From Psychrobacillus glaciei (GTDB lineage Bacteria; Bacillota; Bacilli; Bacillales_A; Planococcaceae), in contig NZ_CP031223.1 in NCBI RefSeq assembly GCF_008973485.1, positions 2,852,001 to 2,916,000 on the forward strand: a DNA stretch of 64,000 nt, written 5' to 3'. Below, in pieces: positions 11,141 to 47,090 of this stretch (within the stretch, counting starts at the first letter, position 1; each line of letters starts with the position of its first letter). The position numbers were made by a program, and so were the translations under genes. The notes beneath the pieces were generated by a model, which did no database searches, was not told where the DNA came from, and saw only the letters and a program-made list of their open reading frames with translations.

Positions 11141-11371
11141 AAAAATGCAATCGCCCATTAAGTGCATCTTGTCTTTACCGTTTCCAGAATGCTTTGGACG
11201 AAACATTGGCTACACTATTAACGTATAAATTTATGGAGTATATGGAAGTGAATGCGTCAGTCCCATATACTCTTTTTCGGCAATCTTGTGGTTAATGTTT
11301 GTCCGTCGCCATATTGAAATGTGTAAAGACAAGATGCAATAGTTTTAGATAATGAGAGGAACTAAATAAGA
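11141..11371 (+). repeat. Nested-hairpin repeat (family B), copy 1
   Basis: Begins 1 bp after the ytoA stop codon. The outer arms TGCATCTTGTCTTTAC (11163-11178) and GTAAAGACAAGATGCA (11323-11338) are a perfect 16-bp inverted repeat. A second nested pair is GGACGAAACATT / AATGTTTGTCC. The central hairpin GAGTATATGG (11236-11245) / CCATATACTC (11263-11272) is followed by TTTTT. Other copies start at 14942, 28490, 29548 and 46665. Confidence 0.9.
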
Positions 11372-11422
11372 TAGTCAAAAATAGAAAGCACTGTAGATTA
11401 GGTATAGCTTTCTTATATTTTA

Positions 11423-11583
11423 GAAAAGCGAAAGCACCCTATAAGTGCATGATGTACTAGTCATTTCCTAAGTGCCTTGGCCAAAGGATTTAGCCCTGCG
11501 GAAATTTTTGAGACGAGCTTGTGTAGGAGCAGCTATTTCAAATTTGATCCTGCTGGAAAAAGCTTTGGAGTCTAAACAAGTAT
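11423..11583. repeat. Dispersed repeat (family A), copy 2
   Basis: Related to the element at 1037-1263. It has the head AGAAAAGCGAAAGCACCCTA, the interior GACGAGCTTG-x5-GGAGCAGC, and the tail AGCTTTGGAGTCTAAAC. It is followed at about 11596 by a degenerate copy of the boundary motif TATACTTT that abuts the metK terminator. Confidence 0.65.
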
Positions 11584-11614
11584 TAAGTAAAAAAGTATAT
11601 ACTTTTATAAATAA

Positions 11615-11660
11615 AAGAGCAGTCCCAGTAGTCATACGTTGACTGTGGGAATGCTCTTTT
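11615..11660 (-). terminator. Terminator of metK
   Basis: Hairpin AAAGAGCA...TCCCA / TGGGA...TGCTCTTT followed by T residues on the minus strand, a few bases after the metK stop at 11666. Confidence 0.85.
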
Positions 11661-11665
11661 TTATC

Positions 11666-12862
11666 TTATAGTCCTGCTTTTTGTCTTAACTCTTCTGCTT
11701 TATCTGTTTTTTCCCAAGGTGCGTCGATGTCTGTACGGCCAAAATGTCCGTAAGCAGCAGTTTGTTTGTAGATTGGGCGACGAAGATCTAGCATTTTAAT
11801 AATACCAGCTGGGCGAAGATCGAATAATTCACGAATATGGGAAACTAATTGAACTTCTTCTACTTTTCCAGTTCCAAATGTCTCAACTGCGATAGATACT
11901 GGTTGTGCAACACCAATTGCATAAGCTAATTGAACTTCACAACGATCAGCAATTCCAGCTGCAACAATATTTTTTGCAACATAGCGAGCAGCATACGCAG
12001 CAGAACGGTCTACTTTTGTAGGATCTTTACCAGAGAATGCTCCTCCGCCATGACGAGCATATCCACCGTAAGTATCTACGATAATTTTACGTCCTGTTAA
12101 GCCCGCATCTCCTTGTGGTCCACCAATTACAAAGCGTCCAGTTGGGTTAATAAAGTATTTTGTATGCTCATCGATTAAATTAGTAGGAACAATTGGATTG
12201 ATCACTAACTCTTTTAAATCTTTTTGGATTTGTTCTAACGTTACTTCCGGATGATGTTGAGTTGAGATAACAATCGTATCGATATGGACAGGATTATTAT
12301 TTTCATCATACTCCACTGTAACTTGTGTTTTACCATCTGGACGTAAATAGTCTAGCGTTTCATCCTTACGAACTTCTGCTAAACGACGAGCCAATTTATG
12401 CGCTAAACTAATGGGAAGTGGCATAAGTTCTGGCGTTTCATTACAAGCGTAACCAAACATTAAACCTTGGTCCCCTGCTCCTATTGCTTCTATGTCAGAA
12501 TCAGTCATCGAACCTTCACGAGCTTCTAAAGCTTGGTCAACTCCCATTGCAATATCAGCAGACTGTTCGTCTATTGCAGTTAATACTGCTGAAGTTTCCG
12601 AGTCAAAGCCATATTTTGCACGAGTATAGCCTATTTCTTTGATAGTAGCACGAACTACTTTTGGAATGTCTACATAAGTAGAAGTAGTGATTTCTCCTGC
12701 AACTAAAACTAGTCCTGTTGTCACGGTTGTTTCACAAGCTACACGTGCATTTGGATCTTCTGTTAGAATTGCATCAAGAATTGCATCTGAAATTTGATCA
12801 CAAATTTTATCTGGATGTCCTTCTGTTACTGATTCCGATGTAAATAATCGACGTTGTGTCAT
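11666..12862 (-). CDS. metK: S-adenosylmethionine synthetase
   Basis: Makes SAM from methionine and ATP in the cytoplasm as a tetramer. 398 residues, standard length. Visible signatures: [20 protein letters not shown] at the N-terminus, [12 protein letters not shown] (signature 1) and [19 protein letters not shown] (signature 2, with the P-loop-like phosphate site). The RBS AGGAGGAAT is 7 bp before ATG. Upstream lies a SAM-I riboswitch with its own terminator, so expression should fall when SAM is plentiful. It is divergent from pckA, the same arrangement as B. subtilis. Confidence 0.98.
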
Positions 12863-12971
12863 AATAAATTCCTCCTATATCCTGCGAGATTTCTCTCAAG
12901 AATTGATACGGTACTCATTCCCATGTCAAGCTGTTTTGGACTTGGCACACAAGGATAAAGGGCGATGTCAT

Positions 12972-13013
12972 AAAAAAAACCTTCCACTCACGTATATTAC
13001 ACATGAGGAAAGG
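12972..13013 (-). terminator. Riboswitch-controlled terminator upstream of metK
   Basis: On the minus strand CCTTTCCTCATG / CGTGAG-bulge-GGAAGG forms a ~12-bp stem with one bulge, followed by eight T. The 5' arm (CCTTT) can instead pair with the AAAGG just upstream, which is the expected antiterminator switch. Confidence 0.85.
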
Positions 13014-13036
13014 CTATTAATTTCATAAGCACCTTT

Positions 13037-13157
13037 CACTCTTATCAATCAAGGGATTTCACCTTGTCTCAGGTTGGGCACCTTTGTAATAAAAAAAAAA
13101 TTACAGGTTGCCGGGTTTCATAGGGCCTGACCCCTCCACCAGCTCGGGATAAGAGTA
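13037..13157 (-). promoter_or_regulatory. SAM-I (S-box) riboswitch of metK
   Basis: The minus strand shows the S-box core: P1 arms ACTCTTATC (13156-13148) and GATAAGAGT (13046-13038), GAGCTGGTGGAGGG, the kink-turn/P2 region, ATGAAACCCGGCAACC, then GGTGC...CCTGAG. Binding of SAM should stabilise P1 and free the downstream terminator. All conserved blocks are in the right order. Confidence 0.96.
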
Positions 13158-13256
13158 TCCGTTCAATTTTTCATCATACGTAAGTTGGATTGATATGTCA
13201 ATATATTTTTGTTGACGATTTATTTATAAAAGATATAAATAATCACTTTATTAGTG

Positions 13257-13284
13257 TAGACTATTAAGGTAAATGTGTTATACT
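13257..13284 (+). promoter_or_regulatory. pckA promoter with candidate CcpN site
   Basis: TAGACT (13257-13262), a 16-bp spacer, then TATACT (13279-13284), with a TG one base before the -10. The 11-mer TGTGTTATACT (13274-13284) covers the -10 and matches the CcpN consensus TRTGHYATAYW as I remember it. CcpN represses pckA and gapB under glycolytic conditions in B. subtilis. Confidence 0.6.
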
Positions 13285-13351
13285 ATTTCACATATGAAAC
13301 TCATCTCCCTCTTTTATAAGGGAAAATAATTAAAAGGATGGTATATACAAT

Positions 13352-14938
13352 ATGAATTCAATCGATACTGTGAATGAACTGAACGAATTGTTATCTGGAG
13401 AAAATGTTAACATTCAATTATCAGTTGCGCAACTTGTAGAAAAAGCAACATCAAGAGGCGAAGCTGTTTTAACTTCTACGGGAGCCGTGAAAGCAGAAAC
13501 AGGTAAATATACAGGTCGTTCTCCACAAGATAAATACATCGTTGATGAGCCTATATCTAGAGACAAAATCGATTGGGGATCCGTAAACCAACCAATTTCT
13601 TCTGAAGTATTCGAATCACTATATAAAAAAGTTACTAGCTACCTCGCTGAGCAAAATGAATTATTCCTATTCAAAGGTTTCGCTGGTGCTGATAAAACCT
13701 CTCGCTTAAGTATTCAAGTTATCAATGAATATGCTTGGCATAACCTGTTTGCACAACAATTGTTTATCAATCCTACAGAGGAAGAACTTGCAAATCATAA
13801 AGCTGATTTCACAGTTGTAAGTGCCCCTAATTTCAAAGCGAATCCAGCAGTAGATGGAACAAAAACAGAAACGTTTATCATTGTTTCAATGGAAAAACGA
13901 ATCGTGTTAATCGGCGGAACGGAATATGCGGGAGAAATGAAAAAATCTATTTTCTCTATTATGAACTACTTATTGCCAGAACAAAATATTTTACCTATGC
14001 ACTGTTCAGCAAACGTTGGAGAAGAAGGCGACGTTGCATTATTCTTCGGTCTTTCTGGAACAGGAAAAACAACTCTTTCTGCAGACGCGGGACGTAAATT
14101 AATCGGTGACGACGAACATGGTTGGTCCGATAATGGCGTATTTAATATCGAAGGCGGATGTTACGCGAAATGTATCGATCTAACTCGCGAAAACGAACCA
14201 CAAATCTATGATGCAATCACATTTGGTACTGTTTTAGAAAACGTTGTTGTAGATGCGAAAACTCGTGTTGCAAACTATGCAGACAATTCATTAACAGAAA
14301 ATACACGTGCAGCTTACCAAATCCAAAACATCGAAAACATTGTGGATCCTTCTGTTGCTGGTCATCCAAATACCATCGTATTCTTAACTGCTGATGCATT
14401 TGGCGTATTACCTCCAATCAGCAAGCTAACAAAAGAACAAGCAATGTACCATTTCTTAAGTGGATTCACTTCTAAGCTTGCCGGAACAGAGCGTGGAATT
14501 ACATCACCTCAACCAGCATTCTCTACTTGCTTTGGTTCACCTTTCTTGCCATTACATGCGACTGTTTACGCTGAAATGCTTGGAAAGAAAATTGATGAGC
14601 ATGGTGCACAAGTATTCCTAGTAAACACTGGCTGGACTGGTGGAGAATACGGCGTTGGTAGTCGTATGAAGCTTTCTTACACTCGTACAATGGTTCGCGC
14701 AGCAATTGATGGAAAATTGAACAATGTAGAAACTGAAACAGATACAGTATTTGGTTTAGCTATTCCAAAACAAGTAGAAGGTGTACCTTCTGAAGTACTG
14801 ATTCCTCGTAATGCTTGGACCGACAAAGCAGCTTACGATAAAAAAGCGGCTGAACTTGCACAAGCTTTCCATGAGAATTTCAAAAAATTCGGTACAGTTT
14901 CAGAAGAAATTTCGCAAAAAGGCGGACCTTTAGCATAA
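13352..14938 (+). CDS. pckA: Phosphoenolpyruvate carboxykinase (ATP)
   Basis: Gluconeogenic enzyme turning oxaloacetate and ATP into PEP, CO2 and ADP. 528 residues, family length. Motifs: [11 protein letters not shown] near residue 53 (substrate arginine), the P-loop [11 protein letters not shown] around residues 232-242, LIGDDEHGW (metal aspartates) and NTGWTGG. A RBS (AAAGGATGG) precedes ATG. The promoter carries a probable CcpN site. Two stop codons in a row (TAATAA) end the gene and a nested-hairpin repeat begins directly behind them. Confidence 0.97.
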
Positions 14939-14941
14939 TAA

Positions 14942-15380
14942 GAAAAACGTAAACGTCCTTTAAGTGCATCTTGTCTTCTCTATTTCTAGAGTGCTTTGGA
15001 CGAAACATTGACTACATTATTACCATAGGAATTTCTGTGGATGGAGAAGTGACTGCGTCACTTCTCCATCCACTTTTTTCTGTAATCTTGGGGCGTCTGT
15101 TTGTCCGTCGCCTTCTTGAAATATGTAAAGACATAATGCATTTGTTTTGGTTAATGAGAGAATAAATCCATTCTTATTCTTTTAAAAGCGGACGAAGATA
15201 CAATTTCGTCCGCTCAGCACTTCTTTAATAATGGATGCTATCTATTTTTCTCTAGTACCACCTACTCTAATGATACACCCACTGATTCGTGTATACTGTG
15301 TACGGAAAACTAAAAAAAAACTAAAGATCTAACCCTTGAAATTATAGTATGATTCCTTACTAATACTGGATTCTTAGCGA
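14942..15380 (+). repeat. Nested-hairpin repeat (family B), copy 2, with downstream module
   Basis: Begins at the pckA stop codon. The central hairpin is a perfect 16-bp stem, GTGGATGGAGAAGTGA (15037-15052) / TCACTTCTCCATCCAC (15058-15073), with loop CTGCG and a following T6 run, which would also terminate transcription. The outer arms are partly decayed. A second module follows: the boundary motif, then the hairpin GCGGACGAA (15188-15196) / TTCGTCCGC (15205-15213) and about 150 bp that recur at 29770-29930 and 46875-47070. Confidence 0.88.
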
Positions 15381-15435
15381 TAGCTGGGCCAAATCTTCTT
15401 GTTAGGTACTACTCACTCCATGGATTGTAGGGAAA

Positions 15436-15600
15436 GGGGGCGACTCCAGACGGTGGCCAACAGGATGTTGGTCACGAAGGCGTTGCCACACAAGGTGGCG
15501 CTCTTAGCCTTCGTTCCACGGAGACAGATAAGACAACACAAGTGACGCGAATGCGGCGCTCCCGTGGAAAGCGTCCAACTGAAACGGAAATCCGCGGTAT
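15436..15600 (+). repeat. Dispersed repeat (family C), copy 1
   Basis: GC-rich 165 bp opening with GCGACTCCAGACGGTGGCC and ending around GTGGAAAGCG. It holds small hairpins (GGCCAACA/TGTTGGTC and CGAAGGC...GCCAC/GTGGC...GCCTTCG). Its first ~95 bp are nearly identical to 60134-60228. A shortened, inverted relative lies at 28805-28915. Confidence 0.8.
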
Positions 15601-15644
15601 TTATTTAATTCTTTTAAGTACTATGAAGACTGGTTTCGCAGGAG

Positions 15645-15740
15645 GAAAATCCATATACTTTCTTAATCTTTAAGAAACGTGCAAGCGCCTATGTCTGGAC
15701 AGTTACTTAGTAGAAATACATATACTTTCCTATCTTTTAA
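15645..15740. repeat. Truncated family A head flanked by two boundary motifs
   Basis: Contains CATATACTTTCTTAATCTTT (15650), then AAGAAACGTGCAAGCGCCTATGT (the family A head, cut off after a few bases), and a second boundary motif CATATACTTTCCTATCTTTT (15719) that abuts the terminator of the next leftward gene. Looks like an element reduced to its ends. Confidence 0.55.
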
Positions 15741-15744
15741 AGCA

Positions 15745-15783
15745 AAAGAGGATGTCCCATTTATATTGGTGACATCCTCTTTA
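15745..15783 (-). terminator. Terminator of the leftward gene ending at 15784
   Basis: AAGAGGATGTC / GACATCCTCTT hairpin (stem 11 bp) with a T-rich tail on the minus strand, directly after the stop codon. Confidence 0.8.
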
Positions 15784-16233
15784 TTAATCTGCATTTTCAT
15801 CATAATAATGTGTAGTAATGGATGAAGAAAAGATGGAAATAAACTGTTTCGCTATTTCTTCATCTGCTTTATATAAAATTATTTCTGAACCATAATGACT
15901 CACTTCTAATCGTTCGTCCCCATTTACATTAAAAAACATCGTGAACCATTTTAATCCACCGTTAGGATCTACGGAATGATTTCTAAGGAATACACGATTT
16001 TCCTCGTTCAAATTAATGTAAAAAATTTTTATGAGCCCTTCATTCGTAGTTGAAGCCGCTCTCGAACTTAATTCATTGATTGCATGCTCTTCTTCATTCC
16101 AACATTGGATAACAACTTCCTGAAATTCATTTGTATAGTTATCCAAAAGATTGGTCCAAAAGTTTACATCCGACGGAAATGAAGATTTTCCCTCTGTACT
16201 CATTGTTTCAATCTTAACAACTACATTACCCAT
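15784..16233 (-). CDS. Protein of unknown function
   Basis: 149 residues, acidic and soluble, without a signal peptide or membrane segment. I do not recognise the family. The start ATG 16233 (MGNVVVKIET) has AAAGGAG 9 bp upstream. It lies 3 bp after the ytmA stop codon, so it is probably the last gene of an operon with ytkD and ytmA. The C-terminal half (GGLKWFTMFFNVNGDERLEV, then ILYKADEEIAKQF) looks like a small alpha/beta fold. A terminator follows at once. Confidence 0.75.
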   Translation of the reverse strand: MGNVVVKIETMSTEGKSSFPSDVNFWTNLLDNYTNEFQEVVIQCWNEEEHAINELSSRAASTTNEGLIKIFYINLNEENRVFLRNHSVDPNGGLKWFTMFFNVNGDERLEVSHYGSEIILYKADEEIAKQFISIFSSSITTHYYDENAD

Positions 16234-16236
16234 CGA

Positions 16237-17022
16237 CTAAACTCCTTTCTGCCTTTTCATCCAATTACATGCATCCTTCACTACTTGCCGATTCACTTTA
16301 CTTGGAAAAAAGTGCGTATACCCTGGAAAATACCAAGCTTCCACTATTTTATTATTCCCTACTAGTGCTGTCTCTAAAACCTTTGCATGCTCAAAGGAAA
16401 CATTTGTGTCTAATATTCCATGAATGATGAGGGTTGCTGCTTTTATATCCTGTGTATGAGCAAGAACATTTCGGTCTTCATACGCTTTCGTATTATTGGA
16501 AGGTGTACCGCCAATGACTCTTTTCATCATTCTTCGCATATCTGTTCGTTCTTCAAATGTTAAATATATATCCGAAACCCCTGCCCATGTTACGATGGAT
16601 GTAATATCATTTCGTAAAATAGCTGTCCATAGAGCCATTATTCCCCCACGTGAAAAGGCAAATAAATGAACCTTTGCTTTAGAAAATTGCTTTAGTACAT
16701 CAACTGCATAAACTGCATCCCATCGATCTTCTCCAGCAAATTCATCTTTGCCTTCCCCACCCCGATTTCCGCGGTAATAAGGCGCGAATACTATAAAACC
16801 CTCTGAAGCAATTTGCGCAATACGAGCTGGTCTTACCATGCCAATACTTTGCATACCACCTCGGCAGTATAAAATACCTTCATATGTACCTTTCTCTCTA
16901 GGCTCAGCAAGTAATCCCTTCACACGATATCCGCATGACCAATAAGTTATTTCCGTTAACTTAATATGAGGATTTGGCGATGGATAAATTCTCGTCTTCT
17001 CAACCGTTCCATTTTCCTTCAA
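16237..17022 (-). CDS. ytmA: Prolyl-oligopeptidase-like alpha/beta hydrolase YtmA
   Basis: 261-residue cytoplasmic serine hydrolase closely resembling B. subtilis YtmA. FAPYYRGNRGGEG is the typical loop. The nucleophile elbow is FSRGG (near residue 120), the acid region HGILDTNVSFEHA, and the histidine GYTHFFP. The substrate is unknown; peptidase S9-like or esterase activity is assumed from the fold. TTG 17022 is taken as the start because AAGGTGAT lies 5-6 bp upstream and the following VEKTRIYPSP matches the YtmA N-terminus. It overlaps the end of ytkD by 23 bp, indicating coupled translation. Confidence 0.85.
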   Translation of the reverse strand: MKENGTVEKTRIYPSPNPHIKLTEITYWSCGYRVKGLLAEPREKGTYEGILYCRGGMQSIGMVRPARIAQIASEGFIVFAPYYRGNRGGEGKDEFAGEDRWDAVYAVDVLKQFSKAKVHLFAFSRGGIMALWTAILRNDITSIVTWAGVSDIYLTFEERTDMRRMMKRVIGGTPSNNTKAYEDRNVLAHTQDIKAATLIIHGILDTNVSFEHAKVLETALVGNNKIVEAWYFPGYTHFFPSKVNRQVVKDACNWMKRQKGV

Positions 17023-17473
17023 GTGTAATCACCTTCTCTAAAATTGCTTTCATACCAGTATCCTTCATATGAAAACTTAAATTGTTACTATGTAAAAATT
17101 CATCCGTAGTTAACCATACTGCACCTTCTGTTTCAAAACTTGGACCCTCCACATTAATATGGCCAACATTTGCGATATATACCGCCTTACAAAATGGAGT
17201 TTCATCATACACAAGATACTCTGCAATCCACTCTACATTTTTTATTGCGACATTTGTCTCTTCTAATGTTTCGCGCATTATAGCTTCTATAGGCGATTCG
17301 TTTTCCTCCACTTTTCCACCAGGAAACTCAATGCCTCGTTTTGGATGCTTCGTTAATAACCACTTATTTTGATGCTTTGCCAGCACTAAAACATGCATAG
17401 GCTCTAATGGCAACGATCCTTTTTCAAAAGCTAATTCCACACGTATTCCGTGTAAATCTCGGAAAGATAACAT
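17000..17473 (-). CDS. ytkD: Nucleoside triphosphatase YtkD (Nudix)
   Basis: Nudix hydrolase of 157 residues that removes oxidised nucleotides such as 8-oxo-dGTP in B. subtilis. The Nudix box reads GGKVEENESPIEAIMRETLE followed by ETNV: the G-x5-E-x7-RE-x2-EE core is complete, with N in place of the usual final glycine. The ATG at 17473 (MLSFRD) is chosen because AAAAGGAG lies 9 bp upstream and the length then equals YtkD; a TTG at 17497 lies upstream of that RBS. First gene of the ytkD-ytmA-unknown operon. Confidence 0.9.
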   Translation of the reverse strand: MLSFRDLHGIRVELAFEKGSLPLEPMHVLVLAKHQNKWLLTKHPKRGIEFPGGKVEENESPIEAIMRETLEETNVAIKNVEWIAEYLVYDETPFCKAVYIANVGHINVEGPSFETEGAVWLTTDEFLHSNNLSFHMKDTGMKAILEKVITLEGKWNG

Positions 17474-17522
17474 GACCGATGTCTCCTTTTTTACCAATAA
17501 AATTATTCAAGATGATAAGAAT

Positions 17523-18185
17523 TTATGAGGGAACAATTATATACCAATACACCAACATAATCCCAATATCCGCTAGACAATGACTAATAATTGGTGCAGT
17601 AATAGATTTCAGTTTATATCGAAAAATTGCCCACATAATCCCGGCAAGAAAAACAGGAACAACTGCCAATGCATTAAAAGGAAAACTGAAAGTCTCCATC
17701 ACAACAATCAAGTGGTATAAACTATAGAAAATAGATGTAATCATAATCGCTGTCACATTCCCTATTTTGGGTAATAGACGACTATACATAAATTCACGCC
17801 AATAAAATTCTTCTAATATAGGATTAATAAGAGCTAATACTAGTACAAGCAAAATAACCTTTTTACCACTAAAATCCCACTCTTCTAGTAATTGCTGCAA
17901 CTGGGGGATATCCAAAACAAAGGATTGAAAAATAAATACGAAGCTATAAATGGTGATCAAGCAAATCAATCCACTTACAGCACCAACGAGAAGCGACTTT
18001 TTGGATAAAGGAATTTGTATACGATTGCTGTTTCTGTTTTCCTTATTCCAATATACGATTATTAGTGGAATAAACAATAACCATCCATAAAAAAGGAAAA
18101 AGGTTATTAAAACATTATGTACTAAAGAAAGTCCAATAAATATCATAATAGTTGGTCCAATGAGTAAAATAATTTGTTTAAGCAT
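17523..18185 (-). CDS. CPBP-family intramembrane glutamic protease
   Basis: 220-residue polytopic membrane protein with about seven hydrophobic segments. It carries the three CPBP (Abi/Rce1-like) motifs: EEFYWREFMYS (EExxxR), FYSLYH (FxxxH type) and HCLAD (HxxxN/D type) near the C-terminus. Such proteins cleave within membranes or process CAAX-like and bacteriocin-related substrates; the substrate here is unknown. The start is ATG 18185 (MLKQIILLIG), with GGGAGG just upstream. It lies 26 bp downstream of the 18238-18262 terminator region and 49 bp before ytkD. Confidence 0.85.
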   Translation of the reverse strand: MLKQIILLIGPTIMIFIGLSLVHNVLITFFLFYGWLLFIPLIIVYWNKENRNSNRIQIPLSKKSLLVGAVSGLICLITIYSFVFIFQSFVLDIPQLQQLLEEWDFSGKKVILLVLVLALINPILEEFYWREFMYSRLLPKIGNVTAIMITSIFYSLYHLIVVMETFSFPFNALAVVPVFLAGIMWAIFRYKLKSITAPIISHCLADIGIMLVYWYIIVPS

Positions 18186-18232
18186 ATTTCCTCCCAATTC
18201 TTCGATTTATTTTCAATGGTAACATATGTATG

Positions 18233-18262
18233 AAAAAAAGACTTAGCAAGTAGCCAAGTCTC
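18233..18262 (-). terminator. Terminator after the two small unknown genes
   Basis: Minus-strand GACTTGGC-TACTT-GCTAAGTC hairpin (18260-18240) followed by seven T. Confidence 0.8.
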
Positions 18263-18268
18263 AACTAT

Positions 18269-18466
18269 TCATAATTCCTTTTTCTCTTGTGCGAAATTCT
18301 CTTCAGATAATGTTTTTTGTTCTAATTTGTAATTTTCATTTCCTTCTTCTCTGTTTTGCGCTATATTTTGTTTTGATTTTTGTTGTGGTGACTGGTTTAA
18401 TAGCGAACTGACATTACGATAAGATGAATCTGTCTCGTTGCCTTTACGATTAATTATTTTACTCAA
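18269..18466 (-). CDS. Small hydrophilic protein of unknown function
   Basis: 65 residues from TTG 18466 (MSKIINRKGNETD), chosen because AGGAGAG lies 7 bp upstream; this start overlaps the stop codon region of the preceding gene by 8 bp, which suggests coupling. The protein is rich in Q, K, E, N and S with no hydrophobic core (LNQSPQQKSKQNIAQNREEG), so it may be disordered. I do not recognise it. Longer readings back to 18508 are possible but run deep into the preceding gene. Confidence 0.5.
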   Translation of the reverse strand: MSKIINRKGNETDSSYRNVSSLLNQSPQQKSKQNIAQNREEGNENYKLEQKTLSEENFAQEKKEL

Positions 18467-18791: not shown

Positions 18792-18827
18792 CTGCACACA
18801 TCCTTTTTAAAGAGTATGCCACCAAAA

Positions 18828-18862
18828 TTAAAAAACATGCACCACATGGGTACATGTTTTTC
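18828..18862 (-). terminator. Terminator of the YjfB-like gene
   Basis: Minus-strand stem AAAAACATG / CATGTTTTT with a 13-nt loop and a T-rich tail. Confidence 0.7.
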
Positions 18863-18899
18863 ACGATTCTTCTAGACTTTAACCATCTTCCATTCGTAC

Positions 18900-19079: not shown

Positions 19080-19134
19080 AGTCATACCTCCTTTTAAGCT
19101 TATTATCGGTTACTTTAGAAAAAGTTGTATGAGA

Positions 19135-28489: not shown

Positions 28490-28675
28490 AAAACGCTCTT
28501 TAAGTGCATCTTGACTTCATCTTTTCCAGAATGCTTTGGACGAAACATCAACTAAACTATTAACGAAGATTCTCTCTTTTCGGTAATCCTGTGGCGGATG
28601 TTTGTCCGTCGCCATCTTGAAATACGTAAAGACATAATGCATTTGGTTTGGATAACGAGAGATTAGATACTTTCT
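28490..28675 (+). repeat. Nested-hairpin repeat (family B), copy 3, without the central hairpin
   Basis: Carries the head AACGCTCTTTAAGTGCATCT, GGACGAAACATC, and the right half GATGTTTGTCCGTCGCC. The central long hairpin is missing; only GATTCTCTCTTTTCGG remains where it would be. This natural deletion marks the central hairpin as a separate module. Confidence 0.8.
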
Positions 28676-29547: not shown

Positions 29548-29940
29548 AAAACGAAAGTGTTCTTAAGTGCACCTAGTTATCACCAATTCCGAGTGCTTTG
29601 GACGAAACATCAGCTACACTATTAACGAGGGAATCTTTGTGGATGGAGAAGTGATTGCGTCACTTCTCCATCCACTTTTTTCGGTAATATCGTGGCGGGT
29701 GTTTGTCCGTCGCCCTCTTGAATTAGGTAGTGACATGTTGAATTAGGTTTGGTTAAGGAGAGAATAAATCCTTTCCTATTCTTTTAAAAGCGGACGAAGA
29801 TGCAATTTCGTCCGCTCAGCGCTTCTTTATCAATAGATACTAACTATTTTTCTCTAGTCAAACACCAACTGATTCATGTATCTGTGGACGGTAAAAATAA
29901 AAAACAATCAAGATCAAGATCAAGCCCTTGTAAGATTAGA
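29548..29940 (+). repeat. Nested-hairpin repeat (family B), copy 4, with downstream module
   Basis: Preceded by the boundary motif TTATATACTTTCTTAACC (29521). The central 16-bp hairpin GTGGATGGAGAAGTGA (29639-29654) is identical to copy 2, with loop TTGCG and a T6 run. Then the module with GCGGACGAA...TTCGTCCGC (29789-29815) and a 100-bp tail like copy 2. It is not attached to a gene. Confidence 0.85.
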
Positions 29941-30280
29941 AGCACAATTTATCAACACTAATCTAAGTCTCTCTACATCTAGAACTTACCTTTCATCTAC
30001 TTTTTTATCTTTTATGAAAACTATTTCTTCGACGAGACTCCGCACGAAGCGCTTAATAGGAAGGAAGGCTAAGGACGTCTCTTCTTGAGTAAACGCCTTC
30101 ATGACCAATATCGTGTTGGCTCGAGGCTTGTGGTTCTCCCCTCGAAAAGCGAATGCTAGAGCGCTAAGTCCGGGTAAGAATTTATCTATTAGGAGATTCT
30201 ACGTAAGTGACTCGCCATCCAATTCATTTTGAATGGATTCCTATTATCCAAAATTCATATACTTTTTAATTTCTAGAAAT

Positions 30281-38060: not shown

Positions 38061-38062
38061 TG

Positions 38063-38776: not shown

Positions 38777-38792
38777 TGAAAGGAGCAATTAA

Positions 38793-39782: not shown

Positions 39783-39806
39783 GCATTTGCTCAGTCAGGT
39801 GTTTTA
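39769..39806. terminator. Bidirectional terminator between the CDF and alcohol dehydrogenase genes
   Basis: AACACCTGACT / AGTCAGGTGTT hairpin with T/A runs on each side. Confidence 0.88.
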
Positions 39807-40970
39807 TTAAAGGCATGCAGTAAGTATTGCTTTAGTATCGACTGCATTTAGTTTATTGAAATTACCATACTCCCCATTAACCATTGCTTTTTCAACCATA
39901 AGGTCAATTTTAGAATCATCAATGTTGTAATCTGATAAGTTAGTTGGGGCATCTAATGATGCCCAGAATGTTGCTAAACGATCGATACCCTCAAACGCAA
40001 CTTCTTCAGCAGTTTTTCCCGCTGGATCCACATTAAAAACTTTTGTTGCTATCTTTGCAAATCGTTCCGGATTTACATTTACATTATGACGCATCCATCT
40101 TGGGAAAATAATTGCTAAACCGCCGGCATGGGGAATATCATATACCGCTGATACCGCATGTTCGATATTGTGACTTGCCCAATCTCCATTATAGCCCATT
40201 TGTAAGAACCCGTTTAACCCTATTGTACCTGCAAATAAAATCGTTTCACGCAGTTCATAGTTTTCCAAGTCTTCTACAAGTTTTGGAGCTGTTTCAATAA
40301 CCGAACGAAGTACCCCTTCAATCATCTCGTCTTGGACAGGAGTATTCGTCGCATTATGATAATATTGTTCAAACATGTGTGACATCATGTCAACAATGCC
40401 ATAAACAGTCTGATTTAATGGTACAGTAAAAGTATTTTCAGGATCTAAAATAGAAAACTTAGGGAATACAAGCGGATTACCCCATCCATATTTTTCTTGT
40501 GTTTCTTCATTTGTAATAACAGAACCGGCATTCATCTCAGAACCGGTCGCAGCTAGTGTTAAAACAGTTCCAAAAGGCAGTGCATCTGCCGGAATGGCTT
40601 TTCGTGTCACTAAATCCCAAGGGTCTCCATCATATTTAGCAGCAGCAGCGATTAGTTTTGTACAATCAATTACAGAACCTCCGCCAACAGCTAATATAAC
40701 CTCGATTCCTTCTTGCTTACAAATATCTGCCCCATGTTTTGCGGTAGATAATCTTGGATTTGGTTCAACTCCAGCTAATTCAAATACTTCCATATTCGCA
40801 TCATTTAATACTGATATCACTTGATCATATAATCCGTTTTTCTTAATACTTCCTCCACCGTATACAACTAATACTTTTTTTCCGTATAGTGAAAGCTCTT
40901 CTGCTAACTGACTTAACTGTCCTTTACCGAAAATTAATTTTACTGGATTTTGAAAAGAAAAAGCATTCAT
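39807..40970 (-). CDS. Iron-containing alcohol dehydrogenase (YugJ/BdhA type)
   Basis: 387-residue group III alcohol dehydrogenase. Coenzyme-binding [19 protein letters not shown] and [20 protein letters not shown] are in the N-terminal domain. Metal ligands are expected in [34 protein letters not shown]. It resembles B. subtilis YugJ/YugK (NADH-dependent butanol dehydrogenase). Substrate unknown. RBS GGAGGATATGTAG before ATG. It lies downstream of glutamate dehydrogenase but is separated by a terminator, so it is probably its own unit. Confidence 0.9.
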
Positions 40971-41003
40971 CTACATATCCTCCTCTGAATTGTCTTTTAA
41001 TCA

Positions 41004-41034
41004 TAGAAAAACCGCTTGTAAAATACAAGCGGTT
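41004..41034 (-). terminator. Terminator of the glutamate dehydrogenase gene
   Basis: AACCGCTTGTA / TACAAGCGGTT hairpin with a T run on the minus strand. Confidence 0.9.
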
Positions 41035-41059
41035 CAACTTATTCTAAAAAGTGGTTATC

Positions 41060-42304
41060 TTATACCCAACCACGGAAGCGTGAAGCTTCAGCAGTTCTTC
41101 GTACACCAACCATGTATGCAGCTAAACGCATATCAATATTACGAGTTGTAGCTACTTCATAAATATTTTCAAATGCATCTACCATTTTCGAAATAAGTTT
41201 GTCGTTTACTTCATCTTCAGTCCAGTAGTAACCTTGGTTATTTTGAACCCATTCAAAGTATGACACTGTTACTCCACCAGCACTTGCTAAAACGTCAGGA
41301 ACTAATAAAATATCTCTATCGTAAAGAATTTTAGTAGCCTCTGTTGTAGTAGGACCATTCGCAGCCTCAACAACAATTTTAGCTTTAATATTGTGCGCAT
41401 TGTCAGCAGTGATTTGGTTTTCAATTGCAGCTGGAACTAGAATATCGCAATCCAATTCCAATAACTCTTGGTTAGAAATTGTATTTTCAAACAAAGTAGT
41501 AACAGTACCAAAACTATCACGACGATCCAATAAATAATCGATATCTAAACCGTTTGGATCGTGTAAAGCACCGTAAGCATCAGAAATAGCAATAACTTTT
41601 GCACCTTGATCGTTCAAGAATTTAGCAAGGAAACTTCCAGCATTACCAAAGCCTTGAATAACAACACGTGCACCTTGCATATCAATGTCACGTTTTTTCG
41701 CAGCTTCGTTAATAATAATTGTTACACCTTGTGCAGTTGCACGGTCTCTACCTTGTGAACCACCAAGTACAATTGGTTTACCTGTTATAAAGCCTGGTGA
41801 ATTGAATTGGTCCATACGACTATATTCATCCATCATCCATGCCATAATTTGTGCGTTAGTAAATACATCTGGTGCAGGGATATCTTTCGTTGGTCCAACT
41901 ATTTGTCCAACCGCTCTTACATATCCACGGCTTAAACGTTCAATTTCTCCCATAGACATTTCACGTGGGTCACAAACAACCCCACCTTTACCTCCGCCGT
42001 ATGGAAGATCAACAATCCCAGCTTTCAAAGTCATCCACATAGAAAGAGCCTTCATTTCATCAGGTGTTACACCTGGATGGAAACGAACTCCACCTTTAGT
42101 AGGACCAACAGCATCATTATGTTGTGCACGGTAACCAGTAAATACTTTTACTGTATTATCATCCATTTTAACTGGAATGCGTACTTCTAACATTCTAAGT
42201 GGTTCTTTTAGTAGTTCATACATTGCTTCATCATAACCTAATTTGTGCAGAGCCTCTTGAATGACAGCCTGGGTTGATGTGAACAGGTTTAAATTATCAG
42301 CCAT
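41060..42304 (-). CDS. NAD-dependent glutamate dehydrogenase (RocG/GudB type)
   Basis: 414-residue enzyme deaminating glutamate to 2-oxoglutarate. Signatures: VGPTKGGVRFHPGVTPDEMKAL, the catalytic-lysine segment LPYGGGKGGVVCDPR, and the NAD-binding VVIQGFGNAGSFLAKFL. The family also includes leucine dehydrogenase, but the PTKGGVRFHP and IPAPDVFTN blocks favour glutamate. It is the third gene of the rocA-rocD cluster, which suggests a catabolic role like RocG. I cannot tell RocG from GudB by sequence alone. Confidence 0.92.
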   Translation of the reverse strand: MADNLNLFTSTQAVIQEALHKLGYDEAMYELLKEPLRMLEVRIPVKMDDNTVKVFTGYRAQHNDAVGPTKGGVRFHPGVTPDEMKALSMWMTLKAGIVDLPYGGGKGGVVCDPREMSMGEIERLSRGYVRAVGQIVGPTKDIPAPDVFTNAQIMAWMMDEYSRMDQFNSPGFITGKPIVLGGSQGRDRATAQGVTIIINEAAKKRDIDMQGARVVIQGFGNAGSFLAKFLNDQGAKVIAISDAYGALHDPNGLDIDYLLDRRDSFGTVTTLFENTISNQELLELDCDILVPAAIENQITADNAHNIKAKIVVEAANGPTTTEATKILYDRDILLVPDVLASAGGVTVSYFEWVQNNQGYYWTEDEVNDKLISKMVDAFENIYEVATTRNIDMRLAAYMVGVRRTAEASRFRGWV

Positions 42305-42385
42305 TTGATTGTTTCGCCTCTTTATTCATAATGTTTTATTCGGAACAATTGTAACATATAGCAAAGGATATTTGTCTAACAAATA

Positions 42386-43579
42386 TTAATTATTGAATAC
42401 TTTTTTAATTTTTTCAATTGCCCAATCTAATTCTTCTTTTGAGATAACTAGAGGTGGAGCAAAACGAATTACTGTATCATGTGTTTCTTTACATAATAAT
42501 CCTAGTTCTTTTAAAGCTTCACAGTATGGACGTGCTTCTTCAGTTAACTCCATACCGATGAATAATCCACGACCACGAACTTCTTTTATAGAAGGATGTT
42601 GAATTTCTTTTAAAGCATCCATGAAATAATTTCCTAATTCAAGTGAACGTTCTGCTAACTTTTCATCTACCAAAACATCAAGAGCTGCTATAGAAACAGC
42701 ACAAGCCATAGGGTTACCACCAAATGTAGAGCCATGTGATCCTGGGTTAAACACGCTTAAAACATCATTGTTCGCAACGATACATGAAATTGGGAATACT
42801 CCACCACCAAGTGCTTTACCTAAAATGTACATATCTGGATTAACATCTTCCCATTCACATGCAAACATTTTACCAGTACGACCAAGTCCTGCTTGGATTT
42901 CGTCTGCAATAAACAACACATTGTTTTCACGACATAATTCAAGTGCAGCTTTTAAGAAACCAGCTGGAGGAATAACAATTCCCGCTTCCCCTTGAATAGG
43001 CTCAATGATAAAAGCAGCAGTATTCGGAGTAATTGCAGCTTTAAGTGCTTCTAAATCTCCATAAGGAATTAAGTTGATTCCTGGAAGCATTGGTCCAAAT
43101 CCACGTTTATATTCAGGATCAGATGACAAAGACACTGCTCCCATTGTACGACCATGGAAGTTTCCATTACATGCAATGATTTCTGCTTGATCTGCTCCTA
43201 CACCTTTAACATCATAAGCCCATCTACGAGCTGCTTTTAGTGCAGTTTCAACGGCTTCCGCACCAGTATTCATTGGTAATACCATTTCTTTACCTGTTAA
43301 TTTGCTAACTTTTTCATACCATGGACCTAATTGATCGTTATGGAATGCACGTGAAGTTAAAGTTACACGATCGGCTTGATCTTTTAGAGCTTGAATGATC
43401 TTTGAATGACGATGCCCTTGGTTTACTGCAGAATAAGCAGAAAGCATATCCATGTATTTGTTACCTTCTGGATCTTTTACCCAAACTCCTTCTGCTTCTG
43501 AAACAACGATTGGAAGTGGGTTATAGTTATTTGCACCAAATTTATTTGTTTGTTCAATAACTTGTTGTGAAATTGTCAT
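42386..43579 (-). CDS. rocD: Ornithine aminotransferase
   Basis: Class III PLP aminotransferase of 397 residues that turns ornithine and 2-oxoglutarate into glutamate semialdehyde/P5C and glutamate. Shows the [17 protein letters not shown] start typical of the family, [42 protein letters not shown] and the PLP lysine in [10 protein letters not shown]. It lies between rocA and glutamate dehydrogenase. In the 94 bp after rocA a hairpin GAGCAGG/CCTGCTC without a T run may moderate readthrough or stabilise mRNA. Confidence 0.95.
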
Positions 43580-43673
43580 GGATTCATACTCCTCTTTTTT
43601 TTATAGTTGGTAAACACATCGACATTTATAAATACCCATTTATGGAGCAGGCTGTGACACCTGCTCAATAAAA

Positions 43674-45218
43674 TTAAAGCATTTCTGAAGTTGTTTTTGC
43701 TTGCATATGAAGTTGAACATAATCAGGTCCGCCAGCTTTTGAATCTGTACCAGACATATTAAATCCACCAAATGGTTGGTATCCAACGATTGCACCCGTA
43801 CATCCACGGTTGAAGTAAAGGTTACCAACGTGGAATTCTTCACGTGCTTTTTCTAAGTTCATGCGGTTATTTGTAATAACTGCACCTGTTAAGCCGTATT
43901 CCGTGTTGTTTGCAATTTCAATTGCTTCGTTGAAATCTTTTGCTTTTGAAATACCTACAACTGGACCAAAGATTTCTTCTTGCATGATTCGAGAAGTTGG
44001 AGAAAGATCAGCGATTACAGTAGGTTGGATGAAGAATCCTTTTGAATCATCCCCAGTACCACCTGTAACAAGGCGACCTTCTCCTTTACCGATTTCGATA
44101 TAGCTCATAATTTTATTGAAAGAAGCTCCGTCGATAACTGGACCAACAAAATGCTCATCATTATCAGGAATACCAACTGTTAAAGCATTTGTTAATTCTT
44201 CTACACGGCTCACCACTTGATCGTATACATCTTCAACGATTACAGCACGTGAACATGCAGAACATTTTTGACCACTGAAACCGAATGCAGATTTTACGAT
44301 AGATTGAGCAGCTAATTCTAAATCAGCTTCTTTATCTACTACGATTGTATCTTTACCACCCATTTCAAGGATTGAGCGTTTAATCCAGATTTGTCCTGGA
44401 GATAATTTAGATGATTTTTCTACGATTCCTAAACCAACATCACGAGAACCTGTAAAGCTGATTAAACGAGTACGTGGATGTTCTACTAAGAAGTCACCAA
44501 TTTCAGCACCTGAACCTGGGATGAAGTTTACAACACCTGCCGGCATTCCAGCTTCTTCTAGTATCTCAACAAATTTATATGCAACAACTGGAGTAGTTGA
44601 AGCCGGTTTTAATAGAACTGTGTTACCTGCTACCATTGCTGCAACTGTAGTACCAGCCATAATTGCAAACGGGAAGTTCCATGGAGAAATAACTACAGCA
44701 ACTCCTAATGGAATATAGTCATAACGGTTATATTCACCTGGACGGCTTACAACTGGTGAGCCATCTTTTAAACGTAACATTTCGCGGCCATAATATTCTA
44801 AGAAGTCAATTGCTTCCGCTGCTTCTACGTCTGCTTCCACCCAAGTTTTCCCTGCTTCTTTTGATAATAATGCAGAGAATTCAGCTTTACGACGGCGCAT
44901 AATAGCTGCTGCTTTGAAAAGAACGTCAGCACGAACTGCTGGTTTTACTTTTTTCCATGTATTAAAAACTTCATCTGCAATATCCATTGCTTTAGATGCA
45001 ATATCTTTTGTTGCTTTAGAAACAGTACCTACTACTTGCTCTTTATTTGCTGGGTTATAAGAAGTGATTTTACCTTCAGTCGTAATTCTTTCACCGCCAA
45101 CGATTAACGGGTACTCTTCACCAAGGTATGCTTCAACTACTTTATATCCTTCTTTAATCGCTTTTTTGTTTTCTTCTTTAGAAAAATCTGTGAATGCTTC
45201 ATGTCTATAATCAATCAT
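43674..45218 (-). CDS. rocA: 1-pyrroline-5-carboxylate dehydrogenase
   Basis: Aldehyde dehydrogenase family member of 514 residues, oxidising P5C/glutamate semialdehyde to glutamate with NAD. Motifs: [35 protein letters not shown], catalytic glutamate in [12 protein letters not shown] and catalytic cysteine in [15 protein letters not shown], then [13 protein letters not shown] [12 protein letters not shown]. Ends with [32 protein letters not shown] before ATG 45218. Divergent from a RocR-like regulator, with two small palindromes between them that may be operators. Confidence 0.96.
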
Positions 45219-45241
45219 GTAAATCCTCCTTAAATTTTAGT

Positions 45242-45300
45242 GCAAAAATAATTTGCTCTTTTAATCCGTTTACATATATAATAATGCAAAAGATTGTTGC
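45242..45300. promoter_or_regulatory. Paired palindromes in the rocA / regulator intergenic region
   Basis: Two 15-mers of pattern GCAA-N7-TTGC: GCAAAAATAATTTGC (45242-45256) and GCAAAAGATTGTTGC (45286-45300), 44 bp apart, about four helical turns. The first overlaps a plausible -35 (TTGCTC, with TATAAT at 45277-45282) of the rightward regulator gene; the second lies in the spacer of a plausible leftward rocA promoter (TTGAAA-17-CATTAT). Possible operators of the RocR-like protein; no -12/-24 promoter seen. Confidence 0.5.
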
Positions 45301-45354
45301 GTTTTTCAAGTATTAAATTCTAAAATGTTGAAATTTTTTTTTGAGGTGAGCCAA

Positions 45355-46662
45355 ATGGACGTAAAATTAGTAAAACTTCTTCCTTTTTATAAATTTGCTA
45401 CGGAGCAAGTAGCCGTTGGAATTCACGCCGTGGATACAACAGGAAGAACAGTTATCTATAACGAAAAAATGAAAGAAATAGAAGGATTAAATTCTGTGGA
45501 CGTAGAGGATCGATCCATTTTAGAACTTTTTCAATTCGAACAACAAGATAGTACATTGTTAAAAGTTCTTCATAGTGGAGAACCCGTTTTACGCGTTAAA
45601 CAGACTTATTGGAATCGAAACGGGCAAGAGATAACTACTATTAATGATACATACCCTGTTTTGGAAGAGGGGAAACTGATTGGAGCAGTAGAATTTTCAA
45701 GAGATATTACTGCATTAGAAAGACTAATTTATCAACCATTAAAACGGTACAATGAACCAATCACCCTTTCTTCTATTACAGCTGTTTCCCTATCCATGCG
45801 AGAAATAGTGGAGAGATCTCTTAAAGCCGCTCACGTTCGAATGCCTGTATTATTAATTGGGGAAGCTGGCACTGGAAAAGATTTAATTGCTGAAGGAATT
45901 CACAATCAGCTATCTCCCGCAAACAATCAATTTATTTCCCTTTTTTGCCACAGTTCGGATAAACACTTAATTAATAAGTTTAAAATAGAGCTAGAACATA
46001 TCACAAACTGTACAATATTTTGTGAAAGAATCGATTTATTATCCCTTGAATTACAAAATCAGCTTTTGCAAATTTTAAATTCAAATAAAAATGGAGAAAA
46101 TTTATTTATCGCAAGTATTGGTCAAGATCCTGTTGATTTAATAGCTACAAATAAGTTAAGTAAAGAACTTTACTATTACTTTGCAACCGTCGCAATTACT
46201 TTACCACCTCTTCGTAATCGGACAGACGATATTCTACCTTTTACACACGATTATTTTAATCGATACCTCAATCGTTATGGTTCCACTATTAATGAAATAG
46301 AGGAAGAAGTTAGTCAAGCATTTTTAACATATGAATGGCCAGGGAATTTAAAAGAACTCGAACTACTATTAGATGAAATTAGCTCCATGATTACAACGGA
46401 GCAAGTGCTAAAATTCGATATGCTCCCTCTTCACTTTAAGTTAAAGGTTCAAGACTTCAATGAAACAACAAAAAAAGCAGAGGATTTTGTTGTCACTTCT
46501 GAAAAAGATATGTTGCCGTTAGATGAATATTTAAGAGAAGCGGAGACGTATTATTTACAAAAAGCATTGGATAAGTTTGATGGGAATATTACAAAGGCTG
46601 CAGAGGCATTAGGTATGAGTCGCCAAAATTTACAGTACCGACTTAGAAAAATGAAAAAATAA
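45355..46662 (+). CDS. RocR-like PAS/AAA+/Fis regulator without the sigma-54-contacting GAFTGA loop
   Basis: 435 residues from ATG 45355 (MDVKLVKLL; GAGGTGAG 4 bp upstream). Domains: PAS (about 15-120), AAA+ (about 140-375) with Walker A GEAGTGKD at 169-176 and LPPLRNRTDDI, and a C-terminal Fis-type HTH (FDGNITKAAEALGMSRQNL). Between Walker A and the Walker B region the sequence is shortened: the GAFTGA loop is absent, and TLFLDEI is replaced by TIFCERI. It should therefore not remodel sigma-54 polymerase; compare E. coli TyrR, which also lacks GAFTGA and works with sigma-70. Position next to rocA suggests control of the roc genes. Confidence 0.85.
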   Translation: MDVKLVKLLPFYKFATEQVAVGIHAVDTTGRTVIYNEKMKEIEGLNSVDVEDRSILELFQFEQQDSTLLKVLHSGEPVLRVKQTYWNRNGQEITTINDTYPVLEEGKLIGAVEFSRDITALERLIYQPLKRYNEPITLSSITAVSLSMREIVERSLKAAHVRMPVLLIGEAGTGKDLIAEGIHNQLSPANNQFISLFCHSSDKHLINKFKIELEHITNCTIFCERIDLLSLELQNQLLQILNSNKNGENLFIASIGQDPVDLIATNKLSKELYYYFATVAITLPPLRNRTDDILPFTHDYFNRYLNRYGSTINEIEEEVSQAFLTYEWPGNLKELELLLDEISSMITTEQVLKFDMLPLHFKLKVQDFNETTKKAEDFVVTSEKDMLPLDEYLREAETYYLQKALDKFDGNITKAAEALGMSRQNLQYRLRKMKK

Positions 46663-46664
46663 GA

Positions 46665-47090
46665 AGCGGCCTTGAAGCGCACCTGGTCTTTACTAGTTCC
46701 AGAGTGCATTGGACGAAACATCGACTACACCATTACCGTAGTAATTTAGCTCGAGAAGTAACTGCATCACTTCTCGAGCCATTTTTTTCAGTAATCTTGT
46801 GGTGGATGTTTGTCCGTCGCCCTCTTGGAATAGGTAGAGACAAGGTGCGTAAGGTTTGGTTAATGAGAGATTAGATACTTTCCTATTCTTTTAAAGGCGG
46901 ACGAAGATGCAATTTCGTCCGTTCAGCACTTCTTTATACTAGGATACTATCTATTTTTCTCTAGTACCGACTACTCTAATCATACACGCACTGAATCATG
47001 TACACTGTGGACGTTAATACTAAAAAAAAATCAAGATTAAACCCTTGAAATGATACTATGAATCTTTACTATTATTGGATTACTAGCATC
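46665..47090 (+). repeat. Nested-hairpin repeat (family B), copy 5, with downstream module
   Basis: Starts directly after the regulator's stop codon. The central hairpin is GCTCGAGAAGT (46749-46759) / ACTTCTCGAGC (46769-46779) followed by T7. The outer arms CGCACCTGGTCTTTAC and GTAGAGACAAGGTGCG show paired changes against copy 1. The downstream module has GCGGACGAA/TTCGTCCG and ~150 bp as in copies 2 and 4. The boundary motif CATATACTTTCATATCTTTT at 47098 adjoins the yugI terminator. Confidence 0.88.

What the first reader, a model, noticed from the sequence alone, without database searches (positions are those of the whole stretch)
11141..46870. A family of nested-hairpin elements whose stems co-vary between copies
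Five copies (start 11141, 14942, 28490, 29548, 46665). Each has outer arms, a middle pair (GGACGAAACAT/ATGTTTGTCC) and, in four, a central hairpin followed by T5-7. The central stem differs in sequence yet stays paired: GAGTATATGG/CCATATACTC (copy 1), GTGGATGGAGAAGTGA/TCACTTCTCCATCCAC (copies 2 and 4), GCTCGAGAAGT/ACTTCTCGAGC (copy 5). The loop keeps a TGCGTCA/TGCATCA-like core in all four. In the outer arms copy 1 has TGCATC/GATGCA and copy 5 CGCACC/GGTGCG, again paired changes. This points to selection on RNA (or cruciform) structure. I know no named family that fits; it could be a structured 3'-UTR/terminator RNA, a small RNA or a MITE with RNA function.
Basis: partly seen in the sequence, partly recalled or inferred. 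Interest (0 to 1): 0.8.

Follow-up and report, generated by a model that had tools for sequence, protein, structure and literature searches.

The report
Rolling-circle mini-transposons targeting transcription terminators
The five nested hairpins are inner parts of short mobile DNA elements, at least 150 copies in this genome, that share both ends with complete IS91-type jumping genes, sit directly behind terminator-like sequences and nearly all point the same way relative to DNA replication; they are likely copied by an IS91-type enzyme, predicted to act on single-stranded DNA at the replication fork.

Summary
A covariance model of the palindrome gives 150 scored hits here (a cap), hits in all 18 other genomes of the genus searched and in a second genus of the family. 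No Rfam family matches the palindrome, but it is not a free-standing RNA gene: it is the inner part of a mobile element of about 0.46 kb (longer where units are joined) whose sense strand is the window's minus strand. Its ends (5' AAGATAAGAAAGTATATG; 3' small hairpin + T-run + CTTA) are those of complete IS91-family (HUH, YxxxY) transposons, four in this genome, others across Bacillota. Both kinds lie directly behind terminator-like hairpins (21 of 23 IS91 flanks, 28 of 30 own flanks, 4.6% of random positions) and point with replication (275 of 293 model hits in four species; 9 of 9 complete IS91 copies found in two). At pckA relatives lack the element. Covariation is strong in the central hairpin, which on the plus strand resembles a terminator for the neighbouring gene, and weaker in the outer arms. 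'MITE/terminator' was partly right; 'new RNA family' is not supported. Main gap: most genomes with the element have no IS91 transposase today.

The parts
46660..47119 (-). Copy 5, the cleanest complete unit (460 bp): minus-strand 5' end at 47098-47119, 3' end at 46660 (plus-strand TAAG, whose TAA is the stop codon of the ORF 45325-46662)
46671..46854 (-). Palindrome of copy 5 (covariance-model hit, called on the plus strand)
46749..46788 (+). Central hairpin + T-run of copy 5 (terminator-like on the plus strand)
46897..46922 (-). B hairpin of copy 5 (followed by a short T-run on the minus strand)
47120..47172 (.). Terminator-like hairpin with A- and T-runs directly outside the 5' end of copy 5
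   Evidence: flank L122 positive
14939..15740 (-). Copy 2 with its joined units (802 bp, two further 5'-end motifs at 15652-15673 and 15719-15740) between the pckA-type stop codon (14936-14938) and its old terminator
14958..15145 (-). Palindrome of copy 2
15037..15079 (+). Central hairpin + T-run of copy 2
15188..15213 (-). B hairpin of copy 2
15457..15523 (-). Bacillaceae-1 RNA match (RF01690) inside the joined stretch of copy 2
15745..15783 (.). Old terminator hairpin of the pckA-type gene, now outside the insertion
11137..11426 (-). Copy 1 (palindrome 11156-11343, central hairpin 11236-11277; no B hairpin found; outer boundary degenerate and read by eye). The TAA at 11137-11139 is the stop codon of the ORF 10621-11139
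28498..28646 (-). Copy 3, palindrome without the central hairpin
29548..30015 (-). Copy 4 (palindrome 29561-29747, central hairpin 29639-29681, B hairpin 29790-29815, degenerate 5'-end motif 29994-30015)

Best explanation
The nested hairpins are inner parts of non-autonomous transposable elements that carry the same two ends as complete IS91-family transposons in this genome, and they are likely copied in trans by an IS91-type HUH transposase, which is predicted to insert them behind intrinsic terminators exposed as single strands on the lagging-strand template. Shown: the shared ends; the terminator-like flank; the orientation with replication; absence of the element at the orthologous pckA site of relatives; kept pairing of the central hairpin. 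Inferred: the 3' end (small hairpin + T-run + CTTA) is the rolling-circle origin; because it looks like a terminator, the enzyme also accepts host terminators, and the ends of earlier copies, as targets, which gives head-to-tail arrays. At sites like pckA the insertion separates a convergent gene's stop codon from its old terminator; the plus-strand central hairpin + T-run, and in some copies the element's terminal stop codon, would replace those signals, which would explain why that stem is kept paired.
For: Complete elements: intact 428-codon genes, IS91 family transposase by NCBIfam NF033538 (303 bits, cut-off 125) and Y2_Tnp + Zn_Tnp_IS91; four in G000, all four with 5' AAGATAAGAAAGTATATG, 3' end read in one of them. 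Own non-autonomous units: 48 places within 3 mismatches of the 23-mer around that 5' end, control 0; 3' T-run in 125 of 150 copies, followed by CTTA in 67, CTTG in 7, CTCA in 5. In relatives lacking IS91, 4 of 19 printed copies (three of G004, one of G007) match the complete IS91 3' end at 27-29 of 31 positions; three more at 20-24. IS91 relatives in other genera have the same ends: all 27 printed of 60 loci end in hairpin + T-run + CTTA or CTCA. Terminator-like 5' flank: 21 of 23 IS91 relatives, 28 of 30 own 5' ends (three of these 30 are complete IS91 copies; by eye 16 are 3' ends of other elements), random 910 of 20000. Replication orientation: 143 of 150, 59 of 64, 60 of 65, 13 of 14 model hits in G000, G015, G008, G003; complete IS91 4 of 4 in G000, 5 of 5 found in Rossellomorea marisflavi. 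pckA. Covariation. Known biology: IS91 moves through a single-stranded circle from ori91 (passages of PMC5714925); IS801 forms miniature derivatives and is active in trans (passages of PMC3189936).
Against: IS91 transposase is scarce where the elements are common: 1 of 19 genus genomes; in the family draw 6 of 121 genomes, two of these with fragments only, against 19 of 121 with the palindrome. So the supplier must be transient, lost or different. A readable 5'-end motif lies within 1 kb of only 55 of 150 palindromes and 25 of 150 lack a readable 3' T-run, so many copies are decayed or jointly organised in ways I did not resolve. The terminator test is my own and lax. Published IS801 targets are GAAC-like tetranucleotides (passages of PMC3189936), unlike this. 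A large survey found IS91-family insertions under-represented between convergent genes (passages of PMC9208149), whereas 19 of 28 own copies with a readable right neighbour have a convergent one. No movement was observed. The need for the whole 190-bp palindrome with its conserved internal loop is not explained.
Confidence: 0.82

Rival explanations
1. A structured RNA (small RNA or 3'-UTR terminator RNA) with a function of its own, kept and spread by selection behind head-on genes.
For: Conserved structure with paired changes in the central hairpin; central hairpin + T-run on the plus strand in 109 of 150 copies; 12 of 30 copies start within 10 nt of the stop codon of a same-strand ORF.
Against: The element carries transposon ends and is absent from the orthologous pckA site. 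Orientation follows the replication fork in 275 of 293 hits, not only the neighbouring gene: the left neighbour is on the same strand in 19 of 30. Transcription was not tested.
Confidence: 0.1
2. Mobilisation by the resident REP-associated (Y1) tyrosine transposase, as for REP/REPIN elements.
For: A Y1_Tnp gene is present in 18 of 19 genus genomes; IS200/IS605-type Y1 elements also target the lagging-strand template (abstract of PMC6006769 in a search listing).
Against: No palindrome hit in 20 Y1 loci. The Y1 gene of G000 has another palindrome upstream, GTTACTGGTGCCAGGCACCAGTAAC. G002 has no Y1 match but 33 palindrome hits. The element ends are those of IS91. The G000 protein scores 74.9 bits against the REP-associated transposase model, just under its cut-off of 80.
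Confidence: 0.05
3. Retro-element: a group IIC-like or reverse-transcribed RNA that inserts behind terminators.
For: 18 RVT_1 matches in G000, 17 of them pointing with replication; group IIC introns are known to insert behind terminators (recalled).
Against: 3 of 19 genus genomes have no RVT_1 match and G002 only a sub-threshold, stop-filled one, yet all have palindrome hits. No intron family in the Rfam scan of the window. The ends are those of an IS91-type DNA element.
Confidence: 0.03

Closest known systems
IS91 family (IS91, IS801, ISCR) and miniature one-ended derivatives of IS801
   Same: Transposase family and HUH/YxxxY motifs of the complete copies, unlike ends without terminal inverted repeats, hairpin at the 3' end, no target duplication seen by eye; IS801 makes short derivatives that keep the right end and is active in trans (passages of PMC3189936).
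   Different: Target is a terminator-like hairpin + T-run instead of GAAC-type tetranucleotides; non-autonomous copies keep both ends around unrelated structured cargo and reach at least 150 copies; strong replication-strand bias.
IS200/IS605 elements (IS608, ISDra2) and REP/REPIN
   Same: Single-strand logic: lagging-strand-template targeting (abstract of PMC6006769), hairpin-marked ends, insertion next to a short motif.
   Different: Transposase is of the Y2/IS91 kind; Y1 loci carry other palindromes.
Group IIC introns
   Same: Insertion behind terminators (recalled) and orientation with replication (17 of 18 RVT_1 matches in G000).
   Different: No intron match in the window; reverse transcriptase not present in all genomes with the element.
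Bacillaceae-1 RNA (RF01690)
   Same: Found in 12 of 20 loci of own copies, in all 12 on the sense strand of the neighbouring element.
   Different: Another sequence module, not the palindrome. Of the four window matches two are on the minus and two on the plus strand, so the link is frequent, not strict.
Classical MITEs
   Same: Short, non-autonomous, many copies.
   Different: No terminal inverted repeats; no target duplication seen.

Membership tests
IS91 family (complete copies) | IS91-type transposase with zinc-binding N-terminus, HUH and YxxxY motifs | tested here: met
   NF033538 303 bits (cut-off 125), PF04986, PF14319; HVH and YIGRY read in the sequence
IS91 family (complete copies) | No terminal inverted repeats, hairpin at the 3' (origin) end | tested here: met
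   one G000 copy; 27 of 27 printed relatives
IS91 family (complete copies) | GAAC/CAAG-type target tetranucleotide, as published for IS801 | tested here: inconclusive
   5' flank is hairpin + T-run, 3' boundary CTTA/CTCA; whether CTTA is target or element end is not settled. Specific to IS91/IS801 rather than family-defining, to my knowledge
Non-autonomous IS91 derivative (the palindrome elements) | Both ends shared with a complete IS91-type element | tested here: met
   clear in young copies, decayed in many (5' motif in 55 of 150)
Non-autonomous IS91 derivative (the palindrome elements) | Moved in trans by the IS91-type transposase | not testable with these tools
   needs a transposition assay
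MITE | Terminal inverted repeats and target-site duplication | tested here: not met
   ends unlike each other; pckA site shows no duplication by eye
REP/REPIN (Y1) | Same palindrome flanking the Y1 gene | tested here: not met
   0 model hits in 20 Y1 loci; other palindrome
Group II intron | Intron ribozyme core recognised by Rfam | tested here: not met
   no match in the window at gathering score
Known Rfam family | Match at gathering score over the palindrome | tested here: not met
   only the separate module RF01690 matches

The most novel reading that the evidence does not exclude
A Bacillota clade of IS91-type rolling-circle transposons uses host intrinsic terminators, folded on the lagging-strand template, as mimics of its own replication origin; because each insertion ends in a new terminator mimic it breeds head-to-tail arrays, and its non-autonomous passengers have become self-insulating terminator cassettes that account for many of the structured repeats of these genomes, Bacillaceae-1 RNA among them.
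Probability: 0.5. Interest if true: 0.75.

Novelty: new variant of a known kind. Interest (0 to 1): 0.62.

Why it matters
If right, one rule (the origin looks like a terminator, so terminators are the target) explains a large set of unexplained structured repeats, their place behind genes, their arrays and their replication-strand bias, and it ties an Rfam 'RNA' to mobile elements. It would extend lagging-strand-template targeting from Y1 (IS200/IS605) to Y2 (IS91-type) transposons, the group that includes ISCR elements. It also warns that covariation within repeats can reflect selection on mobile DNA and on insulation rather than a new RNA gene.

Tried and rejected
Rfam family for the palindrome: none at gathering score. 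REP/RAYT origin: rejected. Group II intron origin: rejected. Exact-pattern scan of genome contigs for the palindrome core: 0 matches (the tool says that records near the window's own genome may be left out). 'CTTA as host target' against 'CTTA as element end': not settled; the pckA site fits the second by eye. More terminators on one strand as the cause of the bias: 248 against 259 terminator-like sites on the two window strands with a lax test, so not by that measure. Gene strand as the cause: 24 of 41 window ORFs of at least 150 aa are on the leading strand; against that share one-sided p = 4e-25, 2e-9, 1e-9 and 0.006 for G000, G015, G008 and G003.

Literature: searches pairing IS91 with non-autonomous/oriIS, lagging strand, rho-independent terminator, leading strand + orientation bias, intrinsic terminator, and transcription terminator listed no paper whose title or abstract start describes terminator targeting or replication bias for IS91. 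Of the papers in those listings I read passages of PMC5714925, PMC3189936 and PMC9208149 only, so this is no proof of absence from print. PMC2864571 (Bacillaceae-1): passages; there it is only a table entry. PMC6006769: abstract start in a listing.

Rows dropped before counts: 3 weaker opposite-strand hits of the same palindromes in G015 (67 to 64), 25 of 150 copies without a T-run, IS91 loci without a readable 5' end or with a repeated flank (60 to 23), and 18 of 48 own 5' ends for which no locus was delivered; one search printed 27 of 60 loci; one search printed 19 of the 20 relatives' stretches fetched (one copy lay too near the end); one search covered 100 sources with a strict threshold and aligned 116 hits. 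Counts of element-like flanks (16 of 30) and of neighbour strands were made by eye from the outputs; a rule-based recount of the flanks gave 15, with two misses and one false inclusion.
Full report
WHAT WAS CHECKED. Copies 1 and 5 fold at -75.9 and -91.5 kcal/mol, z -7.0 and -8.5. Rfam finds no family on the palindrome; it finds Bacillaceae-1 RNA (RF01690) at four other places in the window.

COPY NUMBER AND SPREAD. A DNA search of the own genome gave 47 matches with 40 of 200 candidates scored. A covariance model from 33 own copies (R1) gave 150 hits with 150 of 2107 candidates scored, so 150 is a floor. Among 41 genomes 19 have hits: the own genome and all 18 others of the genus searched; 0 of 22 from other genera. 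In a draw of 121 family genomes 19 have hits, in 2 of 19 genera.

STRAND AND REPLICATION. The first gene of contig 1 of G000 is dnaA, and the hits change strand near 2.07-2.11 Mb. Gene strand does not explain this (24 of 41 window ORFs on the leading strand). From here on the minus strand of the window is the sense strand.

ENDS. On the sense strand the 5' end is AAGATAAGAAAGTATATG: 48 own places within 3 mismatches of the surrounding 23-mer, 0 for the reversed control. The sequence before it is a terminator-like hairpin or the 3' end of another element. The 3' end is a small hairpin, a T-run (readable in 125 of 150 copies) and CTTA (67; CTTG 7, CTCA 5). Copy 5 is the clean case: 46660-47119, with a strong hairpin between A- and T-runs directly outside it.

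THE COMPLETE ELEMENT. Loci found with the 5' end held an intact 428-codon gene of the IS91 family (NF033538, 303 bits; Y2_Tnp and Zn_Tnp_IS91). G000 has four, all pointing with replication; none was found in the 18 other genus genomes. All four have the 18-nt 5' end; the 3' end, read in one copy, is GGACCGGGCGTCTTTTTGCCCGGTTTTTCTTA. Three of the four sit directly on the 3' end of a palindrome element. Of 19 printed copies from relatives that lack IS91, three from G004 and one from G007 match this 3' end at 27-29 of 31 positions, and three more at 20-24.

THE RULE IN OTHER BACILLOTA. A named-genome scan gave 60 loci that encode relatives (Chryseomicrobium, Tetzosporium, Rossellomorea, Neobacillus, Paenibacillus, Desulfosporosinus and others). 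The 27 that I printed all have hairpin + T-run + CTTA (26) or CTCA (1) at the 3' end. Of 23 with a readable AAGATAAG-type 5' end and a distinct flank, 21 are preceded by a terminator-like hairpin + T-run; own 5' ends 28 of 30; random window positions 910 of 20000. The five copies found in Rossellomorea marisflavi CP033051 all point with replication.

EMPTY SITE. The pckA-type gene (PEPCK_ATP) ends TAATAA in G000, followed by 802 bp of element sequence (more than one unit) and then by a terminator hairpin. In G006, G010, G011 and G016 the corresponding hairpin follows the stop codon within about 12 nt, in G003 within about 50; none of the 18 relatives shows the palindrome in the stretch printed behind the gene, though some carry other repeats there. 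By eye the joined site in G000 has the same length as in G016, with three differing bases and no duplication, if CTTA belongs to the element.

ANATOMY AND COVARIATION. On the sense strand: 5' end, variable modules (Bacillaceae-1 RNA lies in 12 of 20 copy loci, all 12 on the sense strand; whether it belongs to the same unit or to a joined neighbour differs between loci), a B hairpin (GCGGACGAA..TTCGTCCGC in G000; GCGTCCGAA..TTCGGACGC in G015 and G017, GCGCCCGAA..TTCGGGCGC in G017), the palindrome, the 3' hairpin. On 115 distinct own rows the central helix pairs in 96.8% of cells and 12 of 14 pairs have double changes; the outer helix pairs in 85.4%. Only the central hairpin is taken as clear. 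It is followed by a T-run on the plus strand in 109 of 150 copies.

MECHANISM. Shown: shared ends, terminator-like flank, orientation, absence at an orthologous site. Inferred: IS91-type rolling-circle transposition in trans, with a single-stranded circle as described for IS91 (passages of PMC5714925), integrating at a terminator exposed on the lagging-strand template, as described for IS608 and ISDra2 (abstract of PMC6006769). IS801 of this family forms miniature derivatives and is active in trans (passages of PMC3189936). The insertion can fall between a convergent gene's stop codon and its terminator: 12 of 30 copies begin within 10 nt of such a stop. Of 101 copies with a readable terminus, in 19 the element's own terminal stop closes an open frame of at least 100 codons, and in 11 such a frame stops within 12 nt before it. 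The plus-strand hairpin would then replace the displaced terminator; that function is predicted, not shown.

AGAINST. IS91 transposase is scarce today (1 of 19 genus genomes, 6 of 121 in the family draw with two of these fragments) while the elements are common, so the supplier must be transient, lost or different. A 5' motif was readable within 1 kb for only 55 of 150 palindromes. My terminator test is lax. Published IS801 targets differ, and a survey found IS91-family insertions under-represented between convergent genes (passages of PMC9208149). Two of the four RF01690 matches in the window lie on the plus strand. The conserved internal loop of the 190-bp palindrome is not explained.

Noticed in passing
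window 1046-1300: Another repeat begins on the plus strand with TTAAGAAAAGTGTAAGCGCC, i.e. the same type of sense-strand 3' end as the palindrome elements, but with other cargo and with an RF01690 match on the plus strand (1089-1155): several cargo families seem to share these ends.
   Followed up: partly
L244-L263 (e.g. L244, L248, L249): The B hairpin keeps a CGAAATTGYATCTTCG-like core while its outer stem changes by paired changes between species: a further covarying hairpin.
   Followed up: partly
L057:1264-1869 and upstream: Single REP-associated-type Y1 transposase gene with the palindrome GTTACTGGTGCCAGGCACCAGTAAC upstream; Y1 genes, one to three matches each, in 18 of 19 genus genomes.
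   Followed up: partly
G000: 18 RVT_1 matches (some of them two pieces near one place), 17 pointing with replication: many reverse-transcriptase genes, probably group II introns.
   Followed up: no
window 3226-3642: Tandem array with an 82-bp period (about 4 copies, 96% matches) between ORFs; nature unknown.
   Followed up: no
window 59690-60340: Complex intergenic repeat on the minus strand with an RF01690 match (60152-60218) but no palindrome hit nearby.
   Followed up: no
palindrome columns around AGTGCTTTGGAC / GTCCGTCGCC (A2): The two sides of an internal loop are among the best conserved parts across species although they do not pair fully; a protein site or an RNA motif is possible.
   Followed up: no
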